A DNA stretch of 64,000 nucleotides, taken from positions 1-64,000 of the forward strand of contig NZ_JACJLV010000006.1 of the NCBI RefSeq assembly GCF_016902415.1, in the 5' to 3' direction. Below the pieces are notes generated by a model that was not told the origin of the DNA, made no database searches, and saw only the letters and a program-made list of their open reading frames with translations. A program made the translations under genes and the position numbers. Source of the DNA: Mordavella massiliensis (GTDB lineage: Bacteria; Bacillota; Clostridia; Lachnospirales; Lachnospiraceae). The number at the start of each line of letters is the position of its first letter. The stretch's first letter is position 1. Of the stretch, positions 9,550 to 21,603 are shown piece by piece.

Positions 9550-9990
9550 CTAGATACTGAATCCGCTGGCTTCCATATCCGATGCGATATCTTCAATGTT
9601 CTCTTCCACTTCAGTATTCTTTTCTACCCATCTTTGCTTGTCCCAGATCTCGGCACGCTTCCCCATACCGATAAACACAACTTCCTTATCCAGCTGTGCG
9701 AATTCCCTGAGATTTGACGGGATGAGTGTCCGGCCTTGTTTGTCAAGGTCTCCGTCAGTTGCTGCGCCTTGAAAGAAGTACGCAAATGCACGTGCTTTTT
9801 TGTCGGTGGTGGTCGGTAAGGCATTCAGCTTCGCTTCAAAGGTGGTCCATTCGTCTTCCGGATATACGTACAGGCAGTTCTCCATTCCCTTGGTAATGAC
9901 GAAATGCTCCCCTAAATCGTCACGGAACTTCGCAGGAATGATAAGTCTGCCCTTGGCGTCAATATTATGACTGTACTCTCCTTTCAACAT
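9550..9990 (-). CDS. mraZ: MraZ, transcriptional regulator of the dcw operon
   Basis: DNA-binding protein of 146 residues with two AbrB-like half-domains, each carrying the family signature: [13 protein letters not shown] near the N-terminus and [14 protein letters not shown] in the second half. It binds repeated TGG-containing boxes in front of its own gene. The ATG at 9990 gives the standard [15 protein letters not shown] start with a GAAGGGGAAAG ribosome site; an upstream TTG at 10011 in the same frame is less likely. It is the first gene of the operon. Confidence 0.96.
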
Positions 9991-10018
9991 AGAACTTTCC
10001 CCTTCTCGCAAGTGGCTT

Positions 10019-10065
10019 CCACATTTCTACCACTTTGCTCCACTTTTAACCACTTTCTACCACTT
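10019..10065 (-). promoter_or_regulatory. MraZ operator: five AAGTGG-type boxes at 10-11 base spacing
   Basis: On the plus strand CCACTT occurs at 10030, 10040, 10050 and 10060 with exact 10-base spacing, and CCACAT at 10019 continues the row. On the minus strand these read AAGTGG/ATGTGG, matching the known tandem MraZ boxes. They lie between the -10 element and the mraZ ATG, a position suited to autorepression of the dcw operon. Confidence 0.9.
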
Positions 10066-10071
10066 GACCCC

Positions 10072-10100
10072 ATTGTAAACTACTTTTCAGGCAAATTCAA
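10072..10100 (-). promoter_or_regulatory. Sigma-A promoter of the dcw operon
   Basis: Minus-strand TTGAAT (10100-10095), a 17-base spacer and TACAAT (10077-10072). It lies immediately upstream of the MraZ boxes, so bound MraZ would cover the transcription start. Confidence 0.8.
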
Positions 10101-10127
10101 CCCCTTTTTCAAAGATTTTTTCAAGTG

Positions 10128-10212
10128 GGTACAGGGTAAATTACGATTTGGGACAGGGCAAAATGCAATTTGGGACGTAGACCTTTGCAAAAGGTCTACG
10201 TCCCAAATTGCA
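10128..10212. repeat. Palindromic element A with two tandem 22-base arm units
   Basis: Two degenerate direct repeats of 22 bases (10128-10149 and 10150-10171, both of the form GGnACAGGGnAAA...ATTT) run into a perfect inverted repeat with 22-base arms, 10164-10185 and 10191-10212, and a five-base loop. The core is GGGACGTAGACCTT, as in elements C, E and F of this window. The element is downstream of the terminator of the 10255 gene and upstream of the mraZ promoter. It has no protein-coding role that I can see. Confidence 0.85.
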
Positions 10213-10213
10213 A

Positions 10214-10248
10214 TAAAAAAACTGTCGTGTGGTTCCCACGACAGTTTT
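10214..10248 (-). terminator. Intrinsic terminator of the small membrane protein gene
   Basis: Nine-base stem ACTGTCGTG/CACGACAGT (10221-10229 and 10237-10245) followed on the minus strand by a run of T. It lies six bases past the stop of the 10255-10527 gene. Confidence 0.85.
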
Positions 10249-10254
10249 ATCCGC

Positions 10255-10527
10255 TTATTCCGCCGGCGTCTCGGCCGCCTCTGCTTCCCTCGCCTGTGAA
10301 AGTTCCTGCGGCAGCTCGTCCACCGCGCTGTAATCGATCTGGATCTCATCTACCGGCCGGTTGGTCTGGTACGTATTGTACGCGGAATATCCGATCCAGC
10401 CGATCAGCGCCAGCCCGATCACGCCGATCACGCATTTATGCAGCGCATTCTGAAGCTTCTGCTTTTTTATATTTTTCTTGCGGTTTGCTTTTTCTGCTTT
10501 ATATTTATCTACTTTCTCCTGGCTCAT
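10255..10527 (-). CDS. Small single-pass membrane protein, function unknown
   Basis: Protein of 90 residues: a strongly basic N-terminus of about 32 residues (KVDKYKAEKANRKKNIKKQK), one membrane segment at about 33-48 (CVIGVIGLALIGWIGYSAY) and an acidic, Ala/Glu-rich external tail (about 40 residues) ending EAEAAETPAE. By the positive-inside rule the N-terminus is cytoplasmic. A good ribosome site (AAGGAG) precedes the ATG and a terminator follows, so it is a real gene. I do not recognise a family. It sits between degV and the dcw operon as its own unit or the end of the degV transcript. Confidence 0.75.
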   Translation of the reverse strand: MSQEKVDKYKAEKANRKKNIKKQKLQNALHKCVIGVIGLALIGWIGYSAYNTYQTNRPVDEIQIDYSAVDELPQELSQAREAEAAETPAE

Positions 10528-10586
10528 ACTGCTATACTCCTTCTTTCAGACTTGCTCTGAAAGTCATTCTACCACAGTCCGGAGGA

Positions 10587-11426
10587 TTATACAACCACAA
10601 TCACTCCGCCGTCTGCGGCGTACATGCTGCTGATCCCGGCAGTATCCAGGATGACTACATCTTTAAACTGTGCCCGTTCCTTGAGCATATCCCTTACATA
10701 TTCTGCTCTCTCCCGGCAGTTGCAATGGGAGATCGCCAGCACCTTTTCTTTGGAATTTTCCAGTTTCTTTATGACTTCATCTACCAGTTTGACCAGCGCC
10801 TTTTTGATCCCGCGGGCCTGTCCCAGCTGACAGATCGTCCCCGCGTCTGTCGCTCCCATCACCGGCTTGATATTGAGCACTGTGGCGACTACCGCTTTTA
10901 CGCCGGTCAGTCTGCCGTTCTTCCGCAGGATGTCCAGTGTCTCCAGCACGAAGTAAGTGTCCTGTTCCTGAATGTAAGCTTCCACTATGTCTATCACTTC
11001 CCTGAAGCTCATTCCTTTTTCCTCACACTCCTGGATCTTCATGGCGATCAGGGTCTCGCCTACGGAAGCCGACCGCGAATTAAATACGTAAATGTCTTTT
11101 TCTCCGTATTCTTCCCGGTAGAGATCCCTTCCCAGTACAGCGCTGTTATAAGAACCGCTGAGTTCTGCTGATAAGGTAACCGCGTAGACTCTCTCTTCTT
11201 CACAGCGGTACCCTTCCATATATCTTTCCGGTGACGGACAGGATGATTTCGGGCACTCCGGCGATGCGGACACCAGCTTCAGAAATTCCGCCTGATCAAA
11301 GGTCTCATCATCGACAATGCGCTGTCCTGCTACTTCAATCTGCAGAGAAGCCGTCTCAAAATGGCTGGACGCCTTCATCTCCTCTGTCAGTTCTCCGCAG
11401 CTGTCTACAATAATTTTATAACTCAT
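10587..11426 (-). CDS. DegV family fatty-acid-binding protein
   Basis: DegV-fold protein of 279 residues that binds a fatty acyl chain. Family features are the N-terminal YKIIVDSCGELTEEM, the SSCPSPERYMEGY loop that contacts the lipid carboxylate, and GSYNSAVLGR. Many Firmicutes use such proteins to deliver exogenous fatty acids to FakA, but no fakA is nearby, so the partner is unknown. The ATG at 11426 (six bases after GGGAGG) is preferred over an in-frame GTG at 11432. Confidence 0.9.
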   Translation of the reverse strand: MSYKIIVDSCGELTEEMKASSHFETASLQIEVAGQRIVDDETFDQAEFLKLVSASPECPKSSCPSPERYMEGYRCEEERVYAVTLSAELSGSYNSAVLGRDLYREEYGEKDIYVFNSRSASVGETLIAMKIQECEEKGMSFREVIDIVEAYIQEQDTYFVLETLDILRKNGRLTGVKAVVATVLNIKPVMGATDAGTICQLGQARGIKKALVKLVDEVIKKLENSKEKVLAISHCNCRERAEYVRDMLKERAQFKDVVILDTAGISSMYAADGGVIVVV

Positions 11427-12881: not shown

Positions 12882-13175
12882 ATGCCAAATTATCGATACT
12901 CTGCTTCCGGCATTTCCCGGGCGTCCGGCTGTGCCAGGCAGGCCGCGTCAAATGTGGCGCAGACCGGAAACTGTCCGCTCCCGGCAGACGCCTCCTGCGG
13001 CACGCGCGCCGATCAGGGCGACCTGGCAGACCTTCCCATCGCCATGACCTATACCCCCTGGCAGGAGTGGAAAGGAATCTACAAGGCAGAAAAGGCCTTC
13101 CAGCGCGGAACAATTTTTGAAGAACTGGATAAACCATTCCGGGGAACAGGAGGATGCTGCAATGGAAGATCGTAA
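12882..13175 (+). CDS. cotJA: Spore coat-associated protein CotJA
   Basis: Protein of 97 residues. The C-terminal half (MTYTPWQEWKGIYKAEKAF, then RGTIFEELDKPF) is the CotJA signature. The N-terminal 50 residues are a poorly conserved, Ser/Ala/Cys-rich extension. The ATG at 12882 is eight bases from AAAAGGAG; an ATG at 12875 is out of frame. It is the first gene of cotJABC and overlaps cotJB by 14 bases. The product belongs to the inner spore coat. Confidence 0.9.
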   Translation: MPNYRYSASGISRASGCARQAASNVAQTGNCPLPADASCGTRADQGDLADLPIAMTYTPWQEWKGIYKAEKAFQRGTIFEELDKPFRGTGGCCNGRS

Positions 13176-13434
13176 ACGCCCCTGCCGCAGAGAGCTCTTA
13201 GACTGGATCAACGTGGTAAGCTTTGCCGCGGACGACACCAAACTGTTTCTGGATACCCACCCTGGCAATCAGGAAGCCCTGAAATGTTTTGACGCGCTGA
13301 AAAAGCAGCGCACAGAGGCTTTGAAGGAATATGCCAGATACTACGGCCCCCTGACCCTTGACACCGCCGCAGTCTCGTCAGACCGCTGGTGCTGGATCAA
13401 CGAACCCTGGCCGTGGCAGGAAGGAGGATGCTAG
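13162..13434 (+). CDS. cotJB: Spore coat protein CotJB
   Basis: Protein of 90 residues with the CotJB pattern: LLDWINVVSFAADDTKLFLDTHPGNQEAL, a stretch KQRTEALKEYARYYGPLTLD, then CWINEPWPWQEGGC at the end. The ATG at 13162 is used because AGGAGG lies eight bases upstream; the frame is open further up to 13117 but lacks a ribosome site. It is translationally coupled to cotJA and ends three bases before cotJC. Confidence 0.92.
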   Translation: MEDRKRPCRRELLDWINVVSFAADDTKLFLDTHPGNQEALKCFDALKKQRTEALKEYARYYGPLTLDTAAVSSDRWCWINEPWPWQEGGC

Positions 13435-13437
13435 TTT

Positions 13438-14037
13438 ATGTGGAATTATGAAAAAAGGTTACAGTACCCGGTAAAGATCACCCGCACCAACCCTAAGATG
13501 GCCCAGGTCATCATTTCCCAGTTCGGCGGCCCGGACGGCGAACTCGCCGCCTCCATGCGGTATCTCTCACAGCGCTACACCATGCCGTACAAAGAAGTAA
13601 CCGGGATCCTGACCGACATCGGCACCGAAGAGCTGGCCCACATGGAAATGATCTGCGCCATTGTGTATCAGCTTACCAAAGACCTGACCCCGGAAGAAAT
13701 CGAAAAATACGGCTTTGACAAATACTATGTGGATCACACGCTGGCGCTCTGGCCCCAGGCAGCCGCCGGAACCCCGTGGACCGCAACTTATTTCCAGTCC
13801 AAAGGCGATCCCATCACAGACTTAAGCGAAGATATGGCTGCGGAGCAGAAAGCCCGCACCACCTACGACAATATCCTGCGTCTGATCAAAGATCCTGAGA
13901 TCTGCGACCCCATCCGCTTCCTGCGGGAAAGAGAAATCGTACATTATCAGAGATTCGGCGAAAGTCTGCGGATCGTGCAGGACCATCTGGACAGCAGAAA
14001 CTTCTATGCCATCAATCCGGAATTTGACATTAAATAG
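13438..14037 (+). CDS. cotJC: Spore coat manganese catalase-like protein CotJC
   Basis: Ferritin-like four-helix protein of 199 residues, similar to manganese catalases. Metal ligands are visible as the two-helix patterns EELAHMEMI and REREIVHYQRFGE with the earlier Glu at GELAASMRYL. It ends at a TAG that is directly followed by palindromic element B. In spores it probably removes peroxide or acts structurally in the coat. Confidence 0.95.
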   Translation: MWNYEKRLQYPVKITRTNPKMAQVIISQFGGPDGELAASMRYLSQRYTMPYKEVTGILTDIGTEELAHMEMICAIVYQLTKDLTPEEIEKYGFDKYYVDHTLALWPQAAAGTPWTATYFQSKGDPITDLSEDMAAEQKARTTYDNILRLIKDPEICDPIRFLREREIVHYQRFGESLRIVQDHLDSRNFYAINPEFDIK

Positions 14038-14081
14038 TGAACGGGGACGGGGGATTTTCGAAAATCCCCCGTCCCCGTTCA
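14038..14081. repeat. Palindromic element B (GGGGACGGGGGATTT core)
   Basis: A perfect 44-base palindrome with two 22-base arms and no loop, beginning at the base after the cotJC stop codon. The outer TGAACGGGGACG is the same as the arm of element F, while the inner core is the GGGGGATTT type shared with element D. It lies between the convergent ends of cotJC and the 14098 gene and could form a hairpin in either transcript, but it has no U-tract. Confidence 0.85.
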
Positions 14082-14097
14082 TACGACTGATTACGAT

Positions 14098-15186
14098 CTA
14101 TACATATTTTTTCATTCCTTTAGGCATCTGCCCTTTCCTGGCTCCTTTTCCGTAAATTGCAGCCGCATTCATAAATGCGATCATATTTTCTTTAGAAGTG
14201 CCGACAGGCGTTGTACAGCCGGGGCACAAATTATATCCACAGGGATTATCTGCAGCATCTGCAATACACTGACGGATATTTTCTGCAATTTCATCCGGGG
14301 TGCCATTGCGCAGCACATCGACCGGAACCACATTTCCGCTGATCGCGATCCGGTCTCCGAAAGCCTCTTTAAGTTCCTTTAGACTTTCACAATTGTCTAC
14401 CCAGAAACTGCCGATTCCGGCGTCCACCACTTCCGCCCAGCGGTCATGCGTAGAACCGCAGATATGAATACCAGTGGAACCCTGAAACTGATTCATCCTC
14501 TCCACAGACTGTTTGAGGTATGGAATAAAAAATTCCATAAACTGCCGCTTGCTCAACAGATTTTTGGACACCATCGGTTCTGACAGAGTAAACTTAATCC
14601 CCAGCTTACGGTTCAGATCCTGACAGCATTTCACAACACAGTCCGTGGTATATTGCAAAAGTCTGTGCACTCCCTCTTTATCCTTTACCGTTGCTTTTAA
14701 AAATTTTTCTGTTCCATACAGGCTGGCCGCCGTCGTAAATGGTCCGGCAAGGCCGCTGCCCAATATCCGCTCCTCTCCAAAACGCTCCTGCAACCTTTCA
14801 AACGCTTCTGTGATCAGCGGAAAACGTCCGTCCTTTTCCACATTCACCAGTTCCATGTTTTCCACATCCCGTAAAGACGCCAATGCTGGTTTCACAATAT
14901 AAGATACACTTTCTTTTGGATATGCCAGTTCCGTTCCTAATGCTTCTACCAGTGTACGAAGCCCCAGCCCGATCCCCATATTATCCGCCTGAAAATCTTC
15001 TGCCAGCCGTGTTTCCACTTCCACCATGGCGTCTGCCGAAAAATAATAATCACAAATGGGTATTCCGTAAAGTGGAGGCGCGGTCTCTGAAGCGCTGAGA
15101 GATGTAGGTATCCGGTCCACTTCTTCTCCTCTTGCGTAGGCAAGCGCCCGCTCTTTTGGAGTCATTTCCAGTTTGATTAATTCCAT
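14098..15186 (-). CDS. Uroporphyrinogen decarboxylase-fold methyltransferase (MtaA/CmuA-like)
   Basis: Protein of 362 residues in the URO-D superfamily branch that moves methyl groups to or from corrinoids or thiols, not the heme enzyme. The opening LEMTPKERALAYARGEEVDRIP is typical of this branch. A zinc site of the H-x-C...C form is visible: GIHICGSTHDRW and NLCPGCTTPVGTS near the C-terminus. It is the last gene of the metNIQ-AEC operon, 14 bases after the AEC gene. The ATG at 15186 has GGAGG nine bases upstream. Substrate is unknown; no corrinoid protein is nearby. Confidence 0.85.
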   Translation of the reverse strand: MELIKLEMTPKERALAYARGEEVDRIPTSLSASETAPPLYGIPICDYYFSADAMVEVETRLAEDFQADNMGIGLGLRTLVEALGTELAYPKESVSYIVKPALASLRDVENMELVNVEKDGRFPLITEAFERLQERFGEERILGSGLAGPFTTAASLYGTEKFLKATVKDKEGVHRLLQYTTDCVVKCCQDLNRKLGIKFTLSEPMVSKNLLSKRQFMEFFIPYLKQSVERMNQFQGSTGIHICGSTHDRWAEVVDAGIGSFWVDNCESLKELKEAFGDRIAISGNVVPVDVLRNGTPDEIAENIRQCIADAADNPCGYNLCPGCTTPVGTSKENMIAFMNAAAIYGKGARKGQMPKGMKKYV

Positions 15187-15200
15187 TTTCACTTACCTCC

Positions 15201-16115
15201 TTATCCACAAAGCAACATCATCAGCGGAACCGTTACCACTGACAGCACTGTCGACAAAGCAAACAGTTCCGATGCGTATCCGGCATCTTTCCCGTAACGG
15301 ACAGCAAACAGACTGCCGGTGACTCCCGCCGGACAGGCTGAAGCAAGTACCATAATCGTCTTTACCATACCCTGCCCCGGAAACAACAGAAAAATCCCCA
15401 CCAATACTCCTGGCATTACCAACAGCCTGACCGCGCACAACCAGTACAGCCGCCATCTTTTTAAGCACTGCAGCAAATCTGTCTGTGCGATATTAACGCC
15501 TGCCACGATCATTGCCATCGGCGTATTCATCCCCGCGATCATTTCCAGAGGTTCCTCAGCCATCTCCGGTATCTGGATTTGGAAAAGAAAGCACAATACC
15601 CCTGCAACAATTGCCAGAATTGTCGGAGAAGTAAACACCTTTTTCACTGATCTGCGATCTACCTTCCCCGACATCACGATTACCCCATGGGACCAAAGGA
15701 GAAAATTGGCTGCTGCCACATAAGCTGTCATATACATGACTCCTTCTGGCCCGAAAAGCCCCTGCGCCATCGGAATTCCAATAAATCCGCAATTCGAATA
15801 CATAAGCGCAATGTGCTCCACGCATGCCGTATCCGGATCCTGTCCCCGGATCACCAGCCTGCTGATTCCCCAGATCACCGCAAACGATACCAGAGACAGA
15901 ACTGTGGCTACAAACAGCCCTTTTAACAAAGAGCGGTCATACTCTGTCTGAAATGAAGTAAACAACAGAATCGGTGTAAAAACCATCAGAACCAGATCCG
16001 ACAGTTTTTTGTTCAATTCTTCATCTATCATCTTTTGATGATAACAAAACACACCGACCAGCGCCAGTACGGCCATCACCACTGTTTTATACAGTGTCAT
16101 TGCTGCTAATTCCAC
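15201..16115 (-). CDS. AEC family (auxin efflux carrier-like) transporter
   Basis: Polytopic protein of 304 residues with about ten membrane segments and the AEC features YSNCGFIGIPMAQGLFGPEGVMY and ACPAGVTGSLFAVRYG. Family members move small carboxylates such as malate or malonate and other metabolites. The start is a GTG at 16115 with GGAG nine bases upstream. Placement between metQ and the UroD-like methyltransferase suggests it carries a substrate or product of that pathway (inference). Confidence 0.9.
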   Translation of the reverse strand: MELAAMTLYKTVVMAVLALVGVFCYHQKMIDEELNKKLSDLVLMVFTPILLFTSFQTEYDRSLLKGLFVATVLSLVSFAVIWGISRLVIRGQDPDTACVEHIALMYSNCGFIGIPMAQGLFGPEGVMYMTAYVAAANFLLWSHGVIVMSGKVDRRSVKKVFTSPTILAIVAGVLCFLFQIQIPEMAEEPLEMIAGMNTPMAMIVAGVNIAQTDLLQCLKRWRLYWLCAVRLLVMPGVLVGIFLLFPGQGMVKTIMVLASACPAGVTGSLFAVRYGKDAGYASELFALSTVLSVVTVPLMMLLCG

Positions 16116-16147
16116 CCTATCTGTCTCCTTTATTCTTCTTTACGAAG

Positions 16148-16175
16148 AAAAAGGCAGCCAGACTGCCGCCCTTTT
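16148..16175 (-). terminator. Weak intrinsic terminator between metQ and the AEC gene
   Basis: Minus-strand GGCAG-TCTGG-CTGCC hairpin followed by TTTTTCTTC. The stem is short, so partial read-through into the AEC and methyltransferase genes is likely. Confidence 0.6.
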
Positions 16176-16201
16176 CTTATCACATCTATGATTTCCGGTG
16201 C

Positions 16202-17044
16202 TTATTCCCAGCAGGGAATCTGTGTTCCTGCTTTATCTGTCTTAAAATATTCAGCCAGATCATCACACTGAACTGCTTCTGCAATCTCTTTTGCCCATTC
16301 AGCATCTTTGTCTTCGGACCTTACAACAAATCCCACTGCATATGTTTCATTGTCATCAGACTGGCAAAGATAATTATCCGCCGGAAGGCCCGCATTCACC
16401 ATGTGTCCTGCTGCAAGGCAGATGGCATCTGCATCTTTCAGAGACTGTGGCAGTACAGACATTTCCGCTTCAATAAATTGAAAATCATGCGGATTTTCAG
16501 CAATATCATACATGGTCGGAGACTCTACAGAATCATCCAGCGTGATCAGGCCCTGAGACTCCAACATATTCAGGCCGCGTGCCTGATTGGTGGCATCGTT
16601 GCAAAGCCCGATGGTTGCGCCATCCGGAATCTCATCTACAGACTCCCATTTATCTGAATACATCGCAAATAATGGATAAAATGTTTTGGGTTCGATCATC
16701 ACAAGATCTGTACCATTTTCCGCATTATAGCTCTGCATATAGGGTTCATGCTGATACCAGTTCATATCCAGACTTCCTTCTGCCAACGCGACATCCGGCT
16801 GAACACTGTCATCAAACACGCTTTCTTCCACAGTATATCCCAACGCCTCAATCTCATCACGGACAGATTCCAGCTGATCTACCATGTCGGCACGGATTCC
16901 AATCTTTACAGTTGTTTTTTCTTCGGAAGATCCGCTCTCACCGGAACCATCCGCAGAAGACTCATCAGAACCGCCTCCACAGCCAACCAGCAGAGTTCCT
17001 GCCATAGCCATTACCAAAAACATGCTCAATACTTTCTTTTTCAT
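16202..17044 (-). CDS. metQ: MetQ/NlpA-family substrate-binding lipoprotein
   Basis: Lipoprotein of 280 residues: signal peptide with lipobox LLVGC (Cys about residue 22), a Ser/Gly/Glu-rich linker, then a NlpA-type binding domain (VKIGIRADMVDQLE, MNWYQHEPYMQSYNAENGTDL). It would feed the MetN-MetI importer. NlpA proteins bind D/L-methionine or related amino acids; with a UroD-like methyltransferase in the operon, a methylated amino acid is plausible but unproven. Confidence 0.9.
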   Translation of the reverse strand: MKKKVLSMFLVMAMAGTLLVGCGGGSDESSADGSGESGSSEEKTTVKIGIRADMVDQLESVRDEIEALGYTVEESVFDDSVQPDVALAEGSLDMNWYQHEPYMQSYNAENGTDLVMIEPKTFYPLFAMYSDKWESVDEIPDGATIGLCNDATNQARGLNMLESQGLITLDDSVESPTMYDIAENPHDFQFIEAEMSVLPQSLKDADAICLAAGHMVNAGLPADNYLCQSDDNETYAVGFVVRSEDKDAEWAKEIAEAVQCDDLAEYFKTDKAGTQIPCWE

Positions 17045-17106
17045 AATCCTTTGTTTCCTTTCTTAAATAATAATATCCTAAAAATAGAGTTTTCTATTTT
17101 TATTAA

Positions 17107-17775
17107 CTATTTCAATTTTTTATAAATCCAGTCTCCGAAATACTGGATAGCCGCAACCAGGACGATCAAAACTATACAGATAGAATACATGATCTCCTGA
17201 TTAAAGTTCTGATACCCATACGTCAGAGCCACTGCTCCAAGCCCGCCTGCTCCCACAGCGCCAGCCATAGCTGTTGCACCCAGCAGGTTAATGATGGCAA
17301 GGCAAAGACCGGAAATGATAGAAGGAATCGATTCTTTCAACATAACCTTTACCACGATCTGCGCCTTGGACGCACCGAAAGATTTTGCTGCTTCAATCAA
17401 AGCCGGATCCACTTCCTTAAAACTATTCTGGAAAATACGCCCCATAAACGGTGTGACCGCCACGGTCAGCGGCACCAGAGCCGCAGTATCTCCAATCGAT
17501 GTCCCTACCACAAGACGGGTAAACGGAATGATCGATACCATTAAAATAATAAACGGAAAAGAACGTACCGTATTAACAATAAAATCCAGAATCCGGTTAA
17601 TGATTACATTTTCACACAATCCACCCTTTTCTGTGATAATCAGAACCACGCCTACAAAGAATCCCAGAAAAGTAGATAAAACTCCGGAGATCAAAAGCAT
17701 CTTCAGCGTATCAAAAAAAGCCGGAACAATAATCATCTGACAAATTTCTGCAAATGTAAAATTATTTAATGCCAT
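17107..17775 (-). CDS. metI: MetI-type ABC transporter permease
   Basis: Inner membrane permease of 222 residues with five membrane segments and the EAA loop AAKSFGASKAQIVVKVMLKES that docks to the ATPase. The end EIMYSICIVLIVLVAAIQYFG is typical of MetI. The ATG at 17775 follows GGAGAAAAG and lies one base past the metN stop, so the two are translationally coupled. Confidence 0.93.
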   Translation of the reverse strand: MALNNFTFAEICQMIIVPAFFDTLKMLLISGVLSTFLGFFVGVVLIITEKGGLCENVIINRILDFIVNTVRSFPFIILMVSIIPFTRLVVGTSIGDTAALVPLTVAVTPFMGRIFQNSFKEVDPALIEAAKSFGASKAQIVVKVMLKESIPSIISGLCLAIINLLGATAMAGAVGAGGLGAVALTYGYQNFNQEIMYSICIVLIVLVAAIQYFGDWIYKKLK

Positions 17776-17776
17776 A

Positions 17777-18781
17777 TTACTTTTCTCCTTCCTTTTCTTC
17801 TTTGCTGAGATTTTCAAGTTCATGCCAGTTGAAATCTCTCTGTGTCAGGTAATCCGTAACAGCATCCAGATGTTCGTCATCTACATTGATCACAAATATT
17901 CCCATATGATCATTCTGGTACTCCATGATCTTTCCATCCAGAATGGGAAATACATAATCCAGGTCTCTGGACATTTTCCCGAAAAGTTCTCCATCCTCCA
18001 GTCCATTAACCAGATGCGCGATCTGAATGTTATGGCCGGTTTTTGGAAGTTTCATCTCTTCTTCTCCCAGAAGTCTTCTAAGAGACTGGGGCTGTTTAAT
18101 AAAGATTTCTCTTACAGAACCCTCGTCTGCAATTCTTCCGCCTTCCAGGATGCAGGCTTTATTGCAGGCTTTTCTTACAACCTCCATCTGATGCGTAACA
18201 ATAACAACTGTAATTCCTGTTTTTGCATTAATTTCCATCAAAAGTTCAAGAATAGAATTCGTTGTTTTGGGATCCAGCGCTGAGGTTGCTTCATCGCAAA
18301 GCAGGATCTTCGGATCCATGGTAAGCGCCCTTGCAATCGCCACTCTCTGTTTCTGCCCGCCGCTTAAGTTTCTGGGCTTCGCATTCATTTTGTCCGACAT
18401 ACCCACAAGTTCCAGCAATTCCCTGACCTTCCGGTCAATCTCTTCTTTTTTATATTTCCAGCACTGCATGGGAAGTGCTACATTCTGATACACAGTCTGG
18501 CGTTCCAAAAGAGAAAACTGCTGAAAGATCATCCCCACATGTCTGCGGAACTCTCGTAATTCTTTCTCTTTCAGATCCTTTACCTCACATCCGTCCACCT
18601 TAAGGCTTCCTTCCTGATAAGATGTCAGACCATTGATACATCGCAGAAGCGTAGATTTTCCGGCTCCGCTCCGTCCCACCAGTGCATAAATATCACCATC
18701 TTCGATTTTCAGGTTGATGCCTTCCAGCACACTGCTGCCATCATCTTCCCAAATCTTCTTCAGATTATTAATCTCAATCAA
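17777..18781 (-). CDS. metN: MetN-type ABC transporter ATP-binding protein
   Basis: ATPase of 334 residues with Walker A GRSGAGKST, signature LSGGQKQR and Walker B LLCDEATSALD, followed by a C-terminal NIL regulatory domain (about residues 255-334) that senses methionine in MetN. I start it at the TTG at 18781 (protein begins MIEINNLKKIW), five bases after GGAGGGAG. The ATG at 18796 is in frame but has only a poorly spaced AAGGA. No SAM riboswitch or T-box is evident in the short leader. Confidence 0.92.
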   Translation of the reverse strand: MIEINNLKKIWEDDGSSVLEGINLKIEDGDIYALVGRSGAGKSTLLRCINGLTSYQEGSLKVDGCEVKDLKEKELREFRRHVGMIFQQFSLLERQTVYQNVALPMQCWKYKKEEIDRKVRELLELVGMSDKMNAKPRNLSGGQKQRVAIARALTMDPKILLCDEATSALDPKTTNSILELLMEINAKTGITVVIVTHQMEVVRKACNKACILEGGRIADEGSVREIFIKQPQSLRRLLGEEEMKLPKTGHNIQIAHLVNGLEDGELFGKMSRDLDYVFPILDGKIMEYQNDHMGIFVINVDDEHLDAVTDYLTQRDFNWHELENLSKEEKEGEK

Positions 18782-18833
18782 TGTTCTCCCTCCCATGTTC
18801 CTTACTGTGTCGCTTTTTCGCTGAATCTGTAAA

Positions 18834-18839
18834 ATTATA
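18834..18839 (-). promoter_or_regulatory. Extended -10 promoter of the metNIQ operon
   Basis: Minus-strand TATAAT preceded by TGG (ATGGTATAAT), an extended -10. The -35 region is weak. A start about 45 bases upstream of the TTG start codon would leave no room for a riboswitch. Confidence 0.6.
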
Positions 18840-18997
18840 CCATGCGGGATATCTGACTTCATTGGCAGTGAAAACAAATTTCGCCCTTACTATTGTGTAT
18901 TTTGTCCATACAATTCTTCTATTTTTAAGACATCTTATTTATTTTCTCTATAGCTGATACCCTGGTCCTGTTACGTATCATCTTAAATTCTCTCCAC

Positions 18998-19036
18998 AAA
19001 AAAATCGTCGAAGTCAAATGACCTCGACGATTTTTC
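18998..19036 (-). terminator. Terminator of the HgdB-like gene
   Basis: Hairpin ATCGTCGA.GTCA/TGAC.TCGACGAT (19004-19031, one mismatch) with A/T tracts on both sides. On the minus strand it ends the 19060 gene and separates it from metNIQ. Confidence 0.85.
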
Positions 19037-19059
19037 AGTATCTTATTTCCTTTTTTCTT

Positions 19060-20211
19060 TCACAACATTTCCAAAAACGCGGATATCCTGACTGTCAGCT
19101 GGGCAATATCTGCCTGGGAAAAATCCGTAACTACATCCATATAAGGGATATGTTTCTCTTCATGAATAAAATTCCTTACGCTGATAGATTCGATGCTGTC
19201 GGAATGGCACCCCTGAAGAATCATTTCAATAACCCCGTCCACATGAAATTCATCAATGGTACGCCCCAACAGCTCAATGCGGTTGTCGTTTGGCGTCATA
19301 ACCGCACAGCCGATCATCAGGTATCGTTCTGCCAGCGCAGCGTATAGATCCGGATTATCCTCATCTACCAGCCGGTCCTGAGCCTTAATGCCGGTGCAGT
19401 TTTCAAATGCAACCACCACGCCTCCATGTTTTTCTATCACATCCACGATTTTGGACGAATCCCCGCCCATCGGGCATCCGGTGATCAGAATCCTGGGCTT
19501 TCTTCCAGTCGGCGGATTCTTTTGATATTCCTCCAGGATCCGCTCCCGTACGGTATCCAGGACCTCCGGAACCTTTTGAAGGTCCAGCTGATATTTATTT
19601 CCATACAAGATCTGAAATAATTCTTTTCCTGTCATCGGCGGCGGATCCAGTTTCATTAACCCATACAGCCTCTGTACTGCTCTGCGGTTTTCATTACTTA
19701 AATGGATCGCATCTTTTACCATTTCATCAGTAATGACAATATGAAAATACTCTTCCAGATATTCTTTGAATCGGATGATTTCTTTTTTCCATAATTCCAG
19801 ACCATATTCTGACTGACGGTTCGGAAGTTCCATTACATAGACTTCTTTAAAATCGGACATCAGTTCGTACATTTTCTTTTTCCCGTCACAGGTCGTTTCA
19901 CCCACCACGATATCCGAAAAATAGTAAAACGGACATCTGTCGGAAACCGCAAATCCATAGCTGGACTTAATCAGAGGACAGATATTTGCCGGCAATGTCT
20001 GCTCAGCAATTACAACCGTATCATTGGATGATGAACAAAGTCCTACAGGAATGGCCCCTACTGCCATGGCAAGTTCCCTTGGAAAATAAGAACAATAGGC
20101 TCCGATCACCGGCTTCCCGGCTTCTTTATATTTTTTTACCTCCAGGAAAGATTCTCTTTTCTGCTCTGAGAACTGTTCAAATATCTCGGGCAGATCTTTA
20201 ACTAGTCTCAT
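19060..20211 (-). CDS. 2-hydroxyacyl-CoA dehydratase-family (HgdB/BcrC/YjiM-like) iron-sulfur protein
   Basis: Protein of 383 residues in the family of 2-hydroxyacyl-CoA dehydratase D-components, benzoyl-CoA reductase subunits and double-cubane cluster proteins. Conserved Cys sites are GAYCSYFPREL, ANICPLIKSS, SDRCPFYYFSD, GETTCDGKKKMYE, ITGCPMGGD and LQGCHSDSIE. True dehydratases need a second subunit and an ATP-driven activator; neither is visible, so it resembles the stand-alone branch (YjiM-like). It is downstream of the PucR gene and ends at its own terminator. The substrate is unknown. Confidence 0.82.
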   Translation of the reverse strand: MRLVKDLPEIFEQFSEQKRESFLEVKKYKEAGKPVIGAYCSYFPRELAMAVGAIPVGLCSSSNDTVVIAEQTLPANICPLIKSSYGFAVSDRCPFYYFSDIVVGETTCDGKKKMYELMSDFKEVYVMELPNRQSEYGLELWKKEIIRFKEYLEEYFHIVITDEMVKDAIHLSNENRRAVQRLYGLMKLDPPPMTGKELFQILYGNKYQLDLQKVPEVLDTVRERILEEYQKNPPTGRKPRILITGCPMGGDSSKIVDVIEKHGGVVVAFENCTGIKAQDRLVDEDNPDLYAALAERYLMIGCAVMTPNDNRIELLGRTIDEFHVDGVIEMILQGCHSDSIESISVRNFIHEEKHIPYMDVVTDFSQADIAQLTVRISAFLEML

Positions 20212-20270
20212 ATACCCTCTCCAATTTCTCTTGCTGACACTATCTTATCATATCCGGTCTAAAATGCAAT

Positions 20271-21482
20271 CTACTCTTTTTGTCCGCGCTGAAATTCTCT
20301 GAGAGTCATCGTCAGAAGGAGGCGTCTGGCCACATCCGGCTGGTTAATATCGTAACCTATAATTTCATGAATCTTAGCCAGGCGGTAAACCATCGTATTT
20401 CTGTGGATAAACAATTCTTTTGCCGCATGATTTACATTATTGCCGGAAAGAAGATATGCCTTTAAACTTTTATAAAAATCCGTACCTTTTTCCCTGTCTT
20501 CCGCTGCCAGACGGTCAAGATCCTGACAGCCGTATCCTTCGGCTCCCATCTGTTCATAAGCATAAGAACAGACCAGTTCCATATAATATTCATACTCTGT
20601 GAAAAAATGTTTCTCCGGCTCCATTTTCATTCCGATTTCAAGAATCCTCTCCAGGATCCGGCGCTTTTTCCATATCTGTTTTTCATCCTGAAATACATCT
20701 GCGGCCGCGGCAGTTCCCCCGCATTCCAAGGTGAGTTTTTCCGCCAGAAGCATTGCCTTCTTTTGCTTTTCCACGGAATTACATCTGGTAAACAAAATGG
20801 CGGCTTCTCCTTTTTCAATACATATCAGGACATCATCAAAATGATGGCAGATTTCCCTGTGCAAATGGTTGCCGTGCTTCATAAAATCCTGTGGAGTCTT
20901 CATTACTACAAGAACATAAGGACAGACCACATATTTACGAAACGCTTCTCCTCCGCTCTCCGGGATCTGATCCGGGCGGGCATCCCTGCCAAGAAGAAGT
21001 CTGCTCAACATCTGCTTGGTTCCCAGGTCCCGATATCCGTAAATCTGTTTATTCCAGCTCATCCCTATCGAAACCGCACCAGTGATCAGACTGTTCAAAG
21101 AGCAGGCATTTCTCTTTTTTTCATGGTAAGTAATACAGAAACCACTCATAATCCCCCGTACCAGCAGAGGACTTGCAGCCATGACGCCTTTCCCCACGTC
21201 CTTTTTCAACACCTTCTCTTCTGTTTTCTCATGTTCCGGATTCTCGCCTGCATAATATTCTCCCATCAGGCCTGTCCAGAAATCCTCACCGTCCCCGGAT
21301 ATCCCAAGTAGTTCATAAAACTGTTCCGCTCCGGAATCGACCAGCGTTTTCCCGCATGGATCTGTAATGATCACCGGAAGATCAAAAGCCGCTGATAATT
21401 CCCGAACCATATCATCTATCTGATCATTTTTTTCTAAAATCTCAAATACTGTTTTACTATACCGTTCGTATTCTTCCGCCAT
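20271..21482 (-). CDS. PucR/CdaR-type transcriptional regulator
   Basis: Protein of 403 residues. The C-terminal 60 residues (KAYLLSGNNVNHAAKELFIH, then RNTMVYRLAKI) are the PucR helix-turn-helix, and the N-terminal part (FDLPVIITDPCGKTLVDSG) is a sensory region of the kind that opens many PucR proteins. The ATG at 21482 is chosen for AGGAAG upstream; the ATG at 21506 has no ribosome site. It lies 59 bases upstream of the HgdB-like gene in the same direction and is the likely local activator. Members of this family control purine, glycerate or amino acid catabolism. Confidence 0.85.
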   Translation of the reverse strand: MAEEYERYSKTVFEILEKNDQIDDMVRELSAAFDLPVIITDPCGKTLVDSGAEQFYELLGISGDGEDFWTGLMGEYYAGENPEHEKTEEKVLKKDVGKGVMAASPLLVRGIMSGFCITYHEKKRNACSLNSLITGAVSIGMSWNKQIYGYRDLGTKQMLSRLLLGRDARPDQIPESGGEAFRKYVVCPYVLVVMKTPQDFMKHGNHLHREICHHFDDVLICIEKGEAAILFTRCNSVEKQKKAMLLAEKLTLECGGTAAAADVFQDEKQIWKKRRILERILEIGMKMEPEKHFFTEYEYYMELVCSYAYEQMGAEGYGCQDLDRLAAEDREKGTDFYKSLKAYLLSGNNVNHAAKELFIHRNTMVYRLAKIHEIIGYDINQPDVARRLLLTMTLREFQRGQKE

Positions 21483-21603
21483 AACCAACTTCCTAACTTC
21501 TATCATTTGACTTGTTATCTCGATATCATTTCTTTTATCGTATCATAAACAAACGGTCTTCCCAAATCATTAATTTTAATGCACTTATAGATTTTTTCTA
21601 TGC

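What the first reader, a model, noticed from the sequence alone, without database searches (positions are those of the whole stretch)
14098..21482. Uncharacterised cluster: PucR regulator, HgdB-like protein, metNIQ importer, AEC carrier, UroD-like methyltransferase
Seen: seven consecutive minus-strand genes in two transcripts, flanked by housekeeping genes. Known: UroD-fold methyltransferases of this branch move methyl groups to or from corrinoid or thiol carriers; NlpA importers take up methionine-like amino acids; HgdB relatives are low-potential Fe-S proteins; PucR regulators control catabolism. Inference: the cluster may import a methylated amino acid or thioether, demethylate it and export the product by the AEC carrier, with the HgdB-like protein giving low-potential electrons, perhaps for corrinoid reactivation.
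Basis: partly seen in the sequence, partly recalled or inferred. Interest (0 to 1): 0.65.

Follow-up and report, generated by a model that had tools for sequence, protein, structure and literature searches.

The report
Importer-linked corrinoid methyltransferase operon
This operon pairs an altered methionine-type importer with a methyl-transferring enzyme; the pair recurs in related bacteria and probably feeds a vitamin-B12-like enzyme system that strips methyl groups from sulfur or selenium compounds.

Summary
In detail: seven minus-strand genes (PucR, a double-cubane-cluster protein DCCP, metNIQ, an AEC carrier, a UroD-fold methyltransferase), with a terminator-like hairpin between DCCP and metN. 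The grouping is not chance: in 21 of 21 fetched loci with a UroD orthologue (57-92% identity), metN, metI and metQ are its neighbours. DCCP (9 of 21) and AEC (8 intact, 3 partial) are optional. A core (corrinoid protein, RACE-type activase, Mlp3-like methyltransferase) lies in the same locus in 9 genomes and elsewhere in 10 more; the window's genome has it on contig C132. It matches the type 1 mlp gene cluster (PMC10418091), proposed for methyl-selenium/sulfur metabolism. selA occurs in 23 of 23 module genomes and in this one. New here: the linked UroDs form their own clade, and their MetQ partners have lost both asparagines that hold methionine's amino and carboxyl groups (0 of 22 keep either; 48 and 47 of 51 MetQ not paired with UroD keep them). 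So this is probably not a methionine importer. Best reading: an importer-methyltransferase arm of a corrinoid system. Substrate, direction, and selenium versus sulfur remain inference.

The parts
20271..21506 (-). PucR-type regulator, next to DCCP
   Evidence: PF13556 HTH_30 E 1.2e-16; a PucR-type gene (74% identity in L063, 30-36% in the others) lies before DCCP in 7 of 9 DCCP-bearing loci
19060..20211 (-). Double-cubane-cluster protein (HgdB-like), accessory; no activator gene adjacent
   Evidence: NF040772 497 bits over cut-off 350; best PDB 6eno/7yyl E 3.8e-70; no activase in the window; one next to a 59% paralogue on C50
18998..19035 (-). Terminator-like hairpin separating PucR-DCCP from metNIQ-AEC-UroD
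   Evidence: 16 pairs, -21.7 kcal/mol, T run
17777..18796 (-). metN ATPase with NIL domain (likely ATG start 18796; longer TTG frame from 18877)
   Evidence: TIGR02314 283 bits (cut-off 499.7), PF09383; starts listed
17107..17775 (-). metI permease (likely ATG start 17775)
   Evidence: NF008049 197 bits (cut-off 212)
16202..17044 (-). MetQ/NlpA-family binding lipoprotein with altered ligand pocket; the only NlpA match of the genome
   Evidence: PF03180 188.5 bits; sole match at E 0.001; pocket residues
15201..16115 (-). AEC-family carrier, optional part
   Evidence: PF03547; intact in 8, partial in 3 of 21 loci
14098..15192 (-). UroD-fold corrinoid methyltransferase (Mlp-like), zinc ligands H242, C244, C325 (likely ATG start 15186)
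   Evidence: PF01208 215 bits; ligands; model pLDDT 93.8, best fold match MtaA 4ay7 TM 0.80/0.86
14038..14081 (-). Terminator-like hairpin after UroD
   Evidence: 20 pairs

Best explanation
The operon is an uptake-and-methyl-transfer arm of a corrinoid methyltransferase system of the type 1 mlp kind, whose core (corrinoid protein, RACE activase, Mlp3-like UroD and others) lies on another contig. The MetNIQ-type importer brings in a methylated sulfur or selenium compound that carries a carboxylate but is not held like methionine. UroD, with a His-Cys-Cys zinc site, moves its methyl group to the Co(I) corrinoid protein; RACE repairs oxidised corrinoid; the Mlp3-like enzyme passes the methyl to a thiol. 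The freed selenide or thiol goes to selenocysteine synthesis or sulfur metabolism. DCCP is an optional reductase, AEC an optional exporter, PucR a regulator. Shown: gene content, conserved pairing, zinc ligands, altered MetQ pocket, core and Sec genes in the genomes. Inferred: direction of methyl transfer, substrate class, use of the product, roles of DCCP, AEC and PucR.
For: UroD pairs with metN, metI and metQ in 21 of 21 loci. In G124/L036 the operon runs straight into the core. A corrinoid protein of at least 54% identity is in 22 of 23 module genomes plus own; a core with RACE and Mlp3-like gene in 19 of 21. Linked UroDs form one clade (SH-aLRT 99), joined at 99 with the core MlpC group. 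Zinc ligands HCC in all 88 rows outside the MlpS group. Both pocket asparagines lost in 22 of 22 linked MetQ. Only two Pterin_bind matches in the genome, one of them MetH-like. Sec genes YedF, SelD, SelA, SelB, YedE; selA in 23 of 23. Published: recombinant ClMlp2 moves methyl from methylcobalamin to selenide, and an Mlp2-type gene (sdmC) is needed for dimethylselenide use in M. voltae (PMC10418091, main text and legends read); SdmABC-like genes rise on selenium depletion in M. maripaludis (PMC11097638, passages read).
Against: No substrate or reaction is known for any protein of this clade. The window's MetQ is the genome's only NlpA match, so a wider role, methionine included, cannot be dismissed on genomics alone. 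Three of 51 MetQ not paired with UroD also lost both asparagines, so the loss is not unique to this pairing. The Sec trait is common in genomes with type 1 clusters anyway (87% by PMC10418091), and I ran no background count, so 23 of 23 is weak support for selenium over sulfur. L076's genome (a 1.5-Mb MAG) has no corrinoid hit. UroD might work in the reverse sense (corrinoid to imported thiol), as MtaA does.
Confidence: 0.6

Rival explanations
1. Sulfur, not selenium: the module imports a methylthio compound and feeds methyl and thiol into methionine or sulfur salvage; the selenium genes are coincidental.
For: Kountz and Balskus propose this for a minority of clusters (PMC10418091). Zinc His-Cys-Cys fits both elements. 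A MetH-like frame is present.
Against: selA in 23 of 23 genomes plus own. The preprint ties sulfur-type clusters to MarHDK-like genes in genomes without selenium traits; MarHDK was not searched here.
Confidence: 0.35
2. Reverse direction: MetNIQ imports a thiol or selenol acceptor, UroD methylates it from the methyl-corrinoid protein, and AEC exports the methylated product (methyl disposal or detoxification).
For: The nearest solved relative, MtaA, works from corrinoid to thiol (similarity; direction: PMC10418091). An intact AEC gene is present in 8 of 21 loci.
Against: No AEC hit in 10 of 21 loci; energy spent on importing an acceptor only to export it is hard to justify (inference).
Confidence: 0.2
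3. Plain methionine uptake operon with an unrelated methyltransferase gene next door.
For: The transporter parts are nearest to methionine models, though below their cut-offs; it is the genome's only NlpA match.
Against: Pairing in 21 of 21 loci against no UroD-type hit in 63 stretches round other NlpA genes; own groups of both UroD and MetQ; loss of N213 and of N238, the latter worth over 100,000-fold in L-Met affinity in Neisseria MetQ (PMC6739813, passages read).
Confidence: 0.1
4. One reading: DCCP supplies low-potential electrons for corrinoid reactivation in the same pathway.
For: DCCP beside the module in 9 of 21 loci and beside core clusters in L037, L038 and L039.
Against: The 19 cores found have a RACE gene of their own; 12 of 21 loci show no adjacent DCCP (two of them cut at metN by the contig end); no DCCP activator lies in the window.
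Confidence: 0.1

Closest known systems
Type 1 mlp gene cluster (MGC), Kountz and Balskus preprint PMC10418091
   Same: Several UroD-superfamily methyltransferases, corrinoid protein, RACE activase, His-Cys-Cys zinc site, DCCP and 'methionine transporters' as non-core genes, Sec-trait genomes.
   Different: In the window the arm is split from the core; it has a UroD clade paired with metNIQ and a MetQ with a changed pocket. The preprint's main text has no occurrence of MetQ, PucR, CobW or riboswitch and one of 'methionine transporter'; its supplements were not read.
SdmABC dimethylselenide system of Methanococcus (Niess and Klein 2004, seen only as cited in PMC10418091 and PMC11097638)
   Same: Corrinoid protein plus UroD-type methyltransferases, selenium-linked.
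   Different: Archaeal, volatile substrate, no dedicated ABC importer in the passages read.
MetNIQ methionine importer (Neisseria and E. coli MetQ, PMC6739813, PMC12357092, passages read)
   Same: MetN with NIL domain, MetI, NlpA-fold binding protein; of 22 linked MetQ, Arg156 kept in 22, His100 in 22, Tyr103 in 21.
   Different: Asn213, Asn238 and Tyr81 replaced in 22 of 22 linked proteins.
DCCP of Carboxydothermus hydrogenoformans (PDB 6eno, 7yyl)
   Same: Similarity over nearly the whole length, NF040772 over cut-off, most cysteines of the pairwise alignment line up.
   Different: No activator gene in the window; physiological substrate unknown for both (recalled).
MtaA methylcobalamin:CoM methyltransferase (PDB 4ay7)
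   Same: Fold (TM 0.80/0.86), same three zinc-ligand positions.
   Different: 24% identity in the structural match; bacterial, no coenzyme M pathway shown here.

Membership tests
[quoted passage not shown]
   Not in the window: one UroD-type gene, no corrinoid or RACE hit by tblastn over all 64 kb. Met by the core on C132 of the same genome, 6526-11838 of L034, and by the contiguous cluster in L036.
Type 1 mlp gene cluster | No tetrahydrofolate methylase within 20 kb | tested here: inconclusive
   Only two PF00809 matches in the genome, on C110 and C25, none on C88 or C132; the MtrH family was not searched.
Type 1 mlp gene cluster | Mlp2 and Mlp3 members present | tested here: inconclusive
   The Mlp3-like label rests on NF004889 (422 bits, cut-off 244) and on the tree; no reference Mlp1/2/3 sequences were at hand, so the labels are mine.
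Type 1 mlp gene cluster | His-Cys-Cys zinc ligands in the Mlps | tested here: met
   HCC in the window UroD and in the 87 other rows outside the MlpS group, MtaA included; none of the 23 MlpS rows has all three.
L-methionine importer MetNIQ | MetN ATPase with NIL domain, MetI permease, NlpA lipoprotein | tested here: met
   Pfam domains over cut-off; NCBI's methionine-specific models below their cut-offs
L-methionine importer MetNIQ | Pocket residues R156, N213, N238 for amino and carboxyl groups | tested here: not met
   R156 kept, N213 to Ala, N238 to Val in the window protein.
L-methionine importer MetNIQ | Measured L-Met binding and transport | not testable with these tools
   needs protein
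Double-cubane-cluster protein (NF040772) | Score over the curated cut-off | tested here: met
   497.1 bits, cut-off 350
Double-cubane-cluster protein (NF040772) | Partner ASKHA activator encoded with it | tested here: not met
   None in the window; one next to a 59% paralogue on C50.
Double-cubane-cluster protein (NF040772) | [8Fe-9S] cluster bound | not testable with these tools
   needs protein

The most novel reading that the evidence does not exclude
Hub and spokes: one corrinoid core (corrinoid protein, RACE, Mlp3-like enzyme) serves several importer-methyltransferase arms, each with its own UroD clade and its own transporter type. Seen so far: UroD with MetNIQ (21 of 21 loci); a second clade beside antiporter-type permeases (6 of its 9 rows: L056, L059, L073, L074, L075, L119); a third beside SBP_bac_8-type ABC importers (4 of 11 rows seen so: L035 of this genome, L045, L046, L047). 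The 'methionine importers' of the first arm would be misannotated importers of a non-methionine methyl-sulfur or methyl-selenium acid, used by clostridia to scavenge selenium or sulfur.
Probability: 0.3. Interest if true: 0.75.

Novelty: new variant of a known kind. Interest (0 to 1): 0.55.

Why it matters
The substrates of bacterial type 1 mlp clusters are an open question. A methyltransferase clade locked to one importer turns it into a binding assay: whatever this MetQ holds is likely what the UroD acts on. It also warns that a set of NlpA proteins that resemble methionine importers probably are not.

Tried and rejected
SAM riboswitch as a sign of methionine control: none in the linked loci scanned (L072 not scanned, L065 scanned as its twin L036), but none in 13 control metNIQ loci either, so it says nothing and was dropped.

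HgdB-like as 2-hydroxyacyl-CoA dehydratase or benzoyl-CoA reductase: these NCBI models score far below cut-off, DCCP well above.

Route to acetate through a methyl-corrinoid:folate methyltransferase: only two Pterin_bind matches, a 349-aa frame on C110 (FolP-like by inference) and a 799-aa MetH-like frame on C25. Acetyl-CoA synthase and MtrH were not searched.

UroD as uroporphyrinogen decarboxylase: hemE model 41 bits against a cut-off of 303. UroD as folate-independent methionine synthase: MtaA is the best PDB fold match, MetE types are far behind; the held text of PMC7857596 has no hit for UroD, uroporphyrinogen, MtaA or MtbA.

MetQ controls: the 30 were among the top-scoring rows, a bias towards true MetQ; the 31st is L057_13, which lies about 2 kb from the UroD-paired metNIQ of L057 but belongs to a second metNIQ. 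I added 20 proteins from 20 further regions, most of them lower rows (L162 gave no NlpA frame, L150 gave two). In these N213 is kept in 17 and N238 in 16; three (L145, L149, L150_6) lost both, L154 lost N238 only. In four of them the alignment is gapped in the N-terminal half. That the controls are not beside a UroD was checked by tblastn in 63 stretches, without a hit; 30 of these reach only 1.5 kb to each side. One search translated only 10 of 30 control loci because of a strand slip in my script; one search repeats it with all 30. The linked set of 22 is the window, 20 of 21 loci (the L078 frame was missed by my ORF caller, though tblastn finds it) and L057_10, whose UroD belongs to another clade; L055's MetQ was left out. 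L065 is the same contig as L036/G124; L071 and L072 are near copies.

Trees: the MetQ tree carries a warning on long branches (L057_10, L081, Neisseria MetQ). The UroD tree is a quick one without bootstrap, several long rows are of unsure place, and 23 MlpS rows and near copies (15 of 126) were dropped before it.

Lin 2015 (PMC5322559) was read for passages only: a 2-hydroxyglutaryl-CoA dehydratase subunit and an activase appear among YedF-, YedE- or LysR-linked genes. Haft 2023 and Jeoung and Dobbek 2018 are not held. Searches for print on this pairing.
Full report
OBSERVATION. The seven genes exist as described. A 16-pair hairpin with a T run at 19035-18998 parts PucR-DCCP from metNIQ-AEC-UroD, and a TATAAT lies 38 bases before the likely metN start, so two transcripts are plausible. 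The HgdB-like gene is a double-cubane-cluster protein: NF040772 at 497 bits against a cut-off of 350, best solved relative the Carboxydothermus DCCP (organism name recalled). The MetN, MetI and MetQ proteins score below NCBI's cut-offs for the methionine models.

REST OF THE SYSTEM. The window itself holds no corrinoid or RACE gene. The genome (2.61 Mb, 141 contigs, 99.87% complete) has a corrinoid methyltransferase core on contig C132: DUF1638, a CobW-type GTPase, a short UroD-like protein (MlpS), a corrinoid protein, an Mlp3-like UroD, a RACE activase and another UroD 40% identical to the window's, followed by two DCCP-like genes. A cobalamin riboswitch precedes it. In G124 (the same contig as Faecalicatena contorta ET51, L065) metNIQ-AEC-UroD, 80% identical in UroD, runs directly into such a core.

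RECURRENCE. One scan of the genome collection with three aligned orthologues gave 21 loci, UroD identity 57-92%, labelled Lachnospiraceae, Anaerovoracaceae, Oscillospiraceae and Peptostreptococcaceae (the 'Ruminococcus' MAG of L071 is a near copy of the Faecalicatena locus L072, so its label is doubtful). By tblastn, metN, metI and metQ flank UroD in 21 of 21, same strand in 20; in L081 they are on the opposite strand, as in G194. In 63 stretches round about 50 other NlpA genes there is no UroD-type hit. DCCP is adjacent in 9 of 21 (in pieces in L066), with a PucR-type gene before it in 7 of those 9; L075 has a DCCP paralogue about 8 kb off; in L065 and L076 the contig begins at metN. AEC is intact in 8, partial in 3. 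The corrinoid protein is in the locus in 13 of 21 and RACE in 9. Over whole genomes, a corrinoid protein of at least 54% identity is in 22 of 23 module genomes (21 plus G194 and G444) and the own genome; the exception is the 1.5-Mb MAG of L076. A core with corrinoid protein, RACE and Mlp3-like gene is found in 19 of 21: 9 in the locus, 10 elsewhere (in L119 only part of RACE, near the contig end); L077 shows a corrinoid protein and a partial RACE at the contig end; L076 none.

METHYLTRANSFERASE. Zinc ligands H242, C244 and C325 are invariant in 29 aligned rows and coincide with His-Cys-Cys of MtaA, the pattern that PMC10418091 assigns to S/Se rather than O substrates. The AlphaFold model (pLDDT 93.8) matches MtaA 4ay7 best. 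MetNIQ-linked UroDs form one clade (21 rows, SH-aLRT 99), joined at 99 with the core MlpC group and its neighbours.

IMPORTER. In Neisseria MetQ, R156, N213 and N238 hold the amino and carboxyl groups of methionine, and Y81, F98, H100 and Y103 pack round the thioether; N238A weakens L-Met binding over 100,000-fold (PMC6739813, passages read; for E. coli N229A PMC12357092, passages, states over five orders of magnitude). In 22 UroD-linked MetQ: N213 kept in 0 (Ala 21, Gln 1), N238 in 0 (Val 19, Leu 1, Ala 1, Ile 1), Y81 in 0 (Ser 20), R156 in 22, H100 in 22, Y103 in 21. In 31 other MetQ: N213 31, N238 31, R156 31; the two sets split at 100/99 support, with a long-branch warning. With 20 more proteins added, most of them lower-scoring, the totals are 48 of 51 (N213) and 47 of 51 (N238), three of 51 having lost both. 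The loss is total in the linked set and rare but real outside it. I infer a ligand that keeps a carboxylate and perhaps a methylthio or methylseleno group but is not bound like methionine; deaminated acids such as methylthiopropionate or methylthio-oxobutyrate are guesses. The model resembles known MetQ folds. This MetQ is the only NlpA match of the genome.

SELENIUM. The genome carries YedF, SelD (with an in-frame TGA), SelA, SelB, a cysteine-desulfurase-family gene and YedE close together on C121. selA is in 23 of 23 module genomes. PMC10418091 gives 87% for species with type 1 clusters and cites 42% of 184 Clostridia genomes, so 23 of 23 adds little on its own; I ran no background count.

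OTHER ARMS. A second UroD clade (9 rows) sits beside antiporter-type permeases in 6: L056 (Pfam), L059 (NhaC model, under its cut-off), and L073, L074, L075 and L119 by place and look of the neighbour only; L040, L124 and L127 show none. Of 11 rows nearest to UroDx, four (L035 of this genome, L045, L046, L047) sit beside SBP_bac_8 binding proteins or permeases (one search tested one to three genes of each); L044 has core genes on one side and was not tested on the other, and the rest were not examined. This suggests that several importer-methyltransferase pairs share one corrinoid core. It is a pattern, not a tested claim.

COMPARISON AND NOVELTY. The core is the published type 1 mlp gene cluster, whose authors already note methionine transporters and DCCP as non-core genes and propose methyl-selenium or methyl-sulfur metabolism (main text and legends read; supplements not read). 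The window locus alone fails that cluster's definition; it reads as a detached arm of it. What I did not find in print (searches, of open-licence papers only) is the UroD-metNIQ pairing as its own clade, the MetQ pocket change, and the cobalamin riboswitch before the core. Hence a new variant of a known kind.

MECHANISM. Most likely: import of a methylated S/Se acid, demethylation by UroD on to the corrinoid protein, RACE upkeep, methyl disposal through the Mlp3-like enzyme to a thiol, and use of the freed selenide or thiol. Shown: anatomy, conservation, ligands, pocket loss. Inferred: everything about substrate and direction.

Noticed in passing
L034:4378-4554 (+); also L036:4712-4887, L039:16969-17146, L067:8453-8628, L069:7233-7453, L117:5111-5288, L118:12811-12987, L120:5507-5687, L122:7596-7782: A cobalamin riboswitch lies before corrinoid-dependent core genes in nine of about 25 scanned loci that hold a corrinoid gene, in L069 and L120 with a terminator-like hairpin right after it, in L034 with none listed on that strand. 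A B12-dependent system behind a B12 riboswitch is odd if the switch is of the OFF type.
   Followed up: partly
L034:6526-7395 and 22 relatives: MlpS, a 289-aa UroD-like protein in the core, lacks the final zinc cysteine in 23 of 23 rows and the histidine in 20 of 23, so it is probably not an ordinary zinc methyltransferase.
   Followed up: partly
L034:13925-16202: Two tandem DCCP-like genes (NF040772 436 and 314 bits, cut-off 350) close to the core on C132; no activase recognised among the neighbours looked at.
   Followed up: no
L060 (G000:C121) about 9617-10643: SelD of this genome has an in-frame TGA and is probably itself a selenoprotein.
   Followed up: no
L035:1920-6232: A further UroD-type gene followed by an SBP_bac_8 binding protein and two permeases in the same genome: a possible second importer-methyltransferase pair.
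   Followed up: partly
window 13117-14037 (+): CotJB and a manganese-catalase-like (CotJC-type, name recalled) gene converge on the operon; spore-coat rather than housekeeping neighbours.
   Followed up: no
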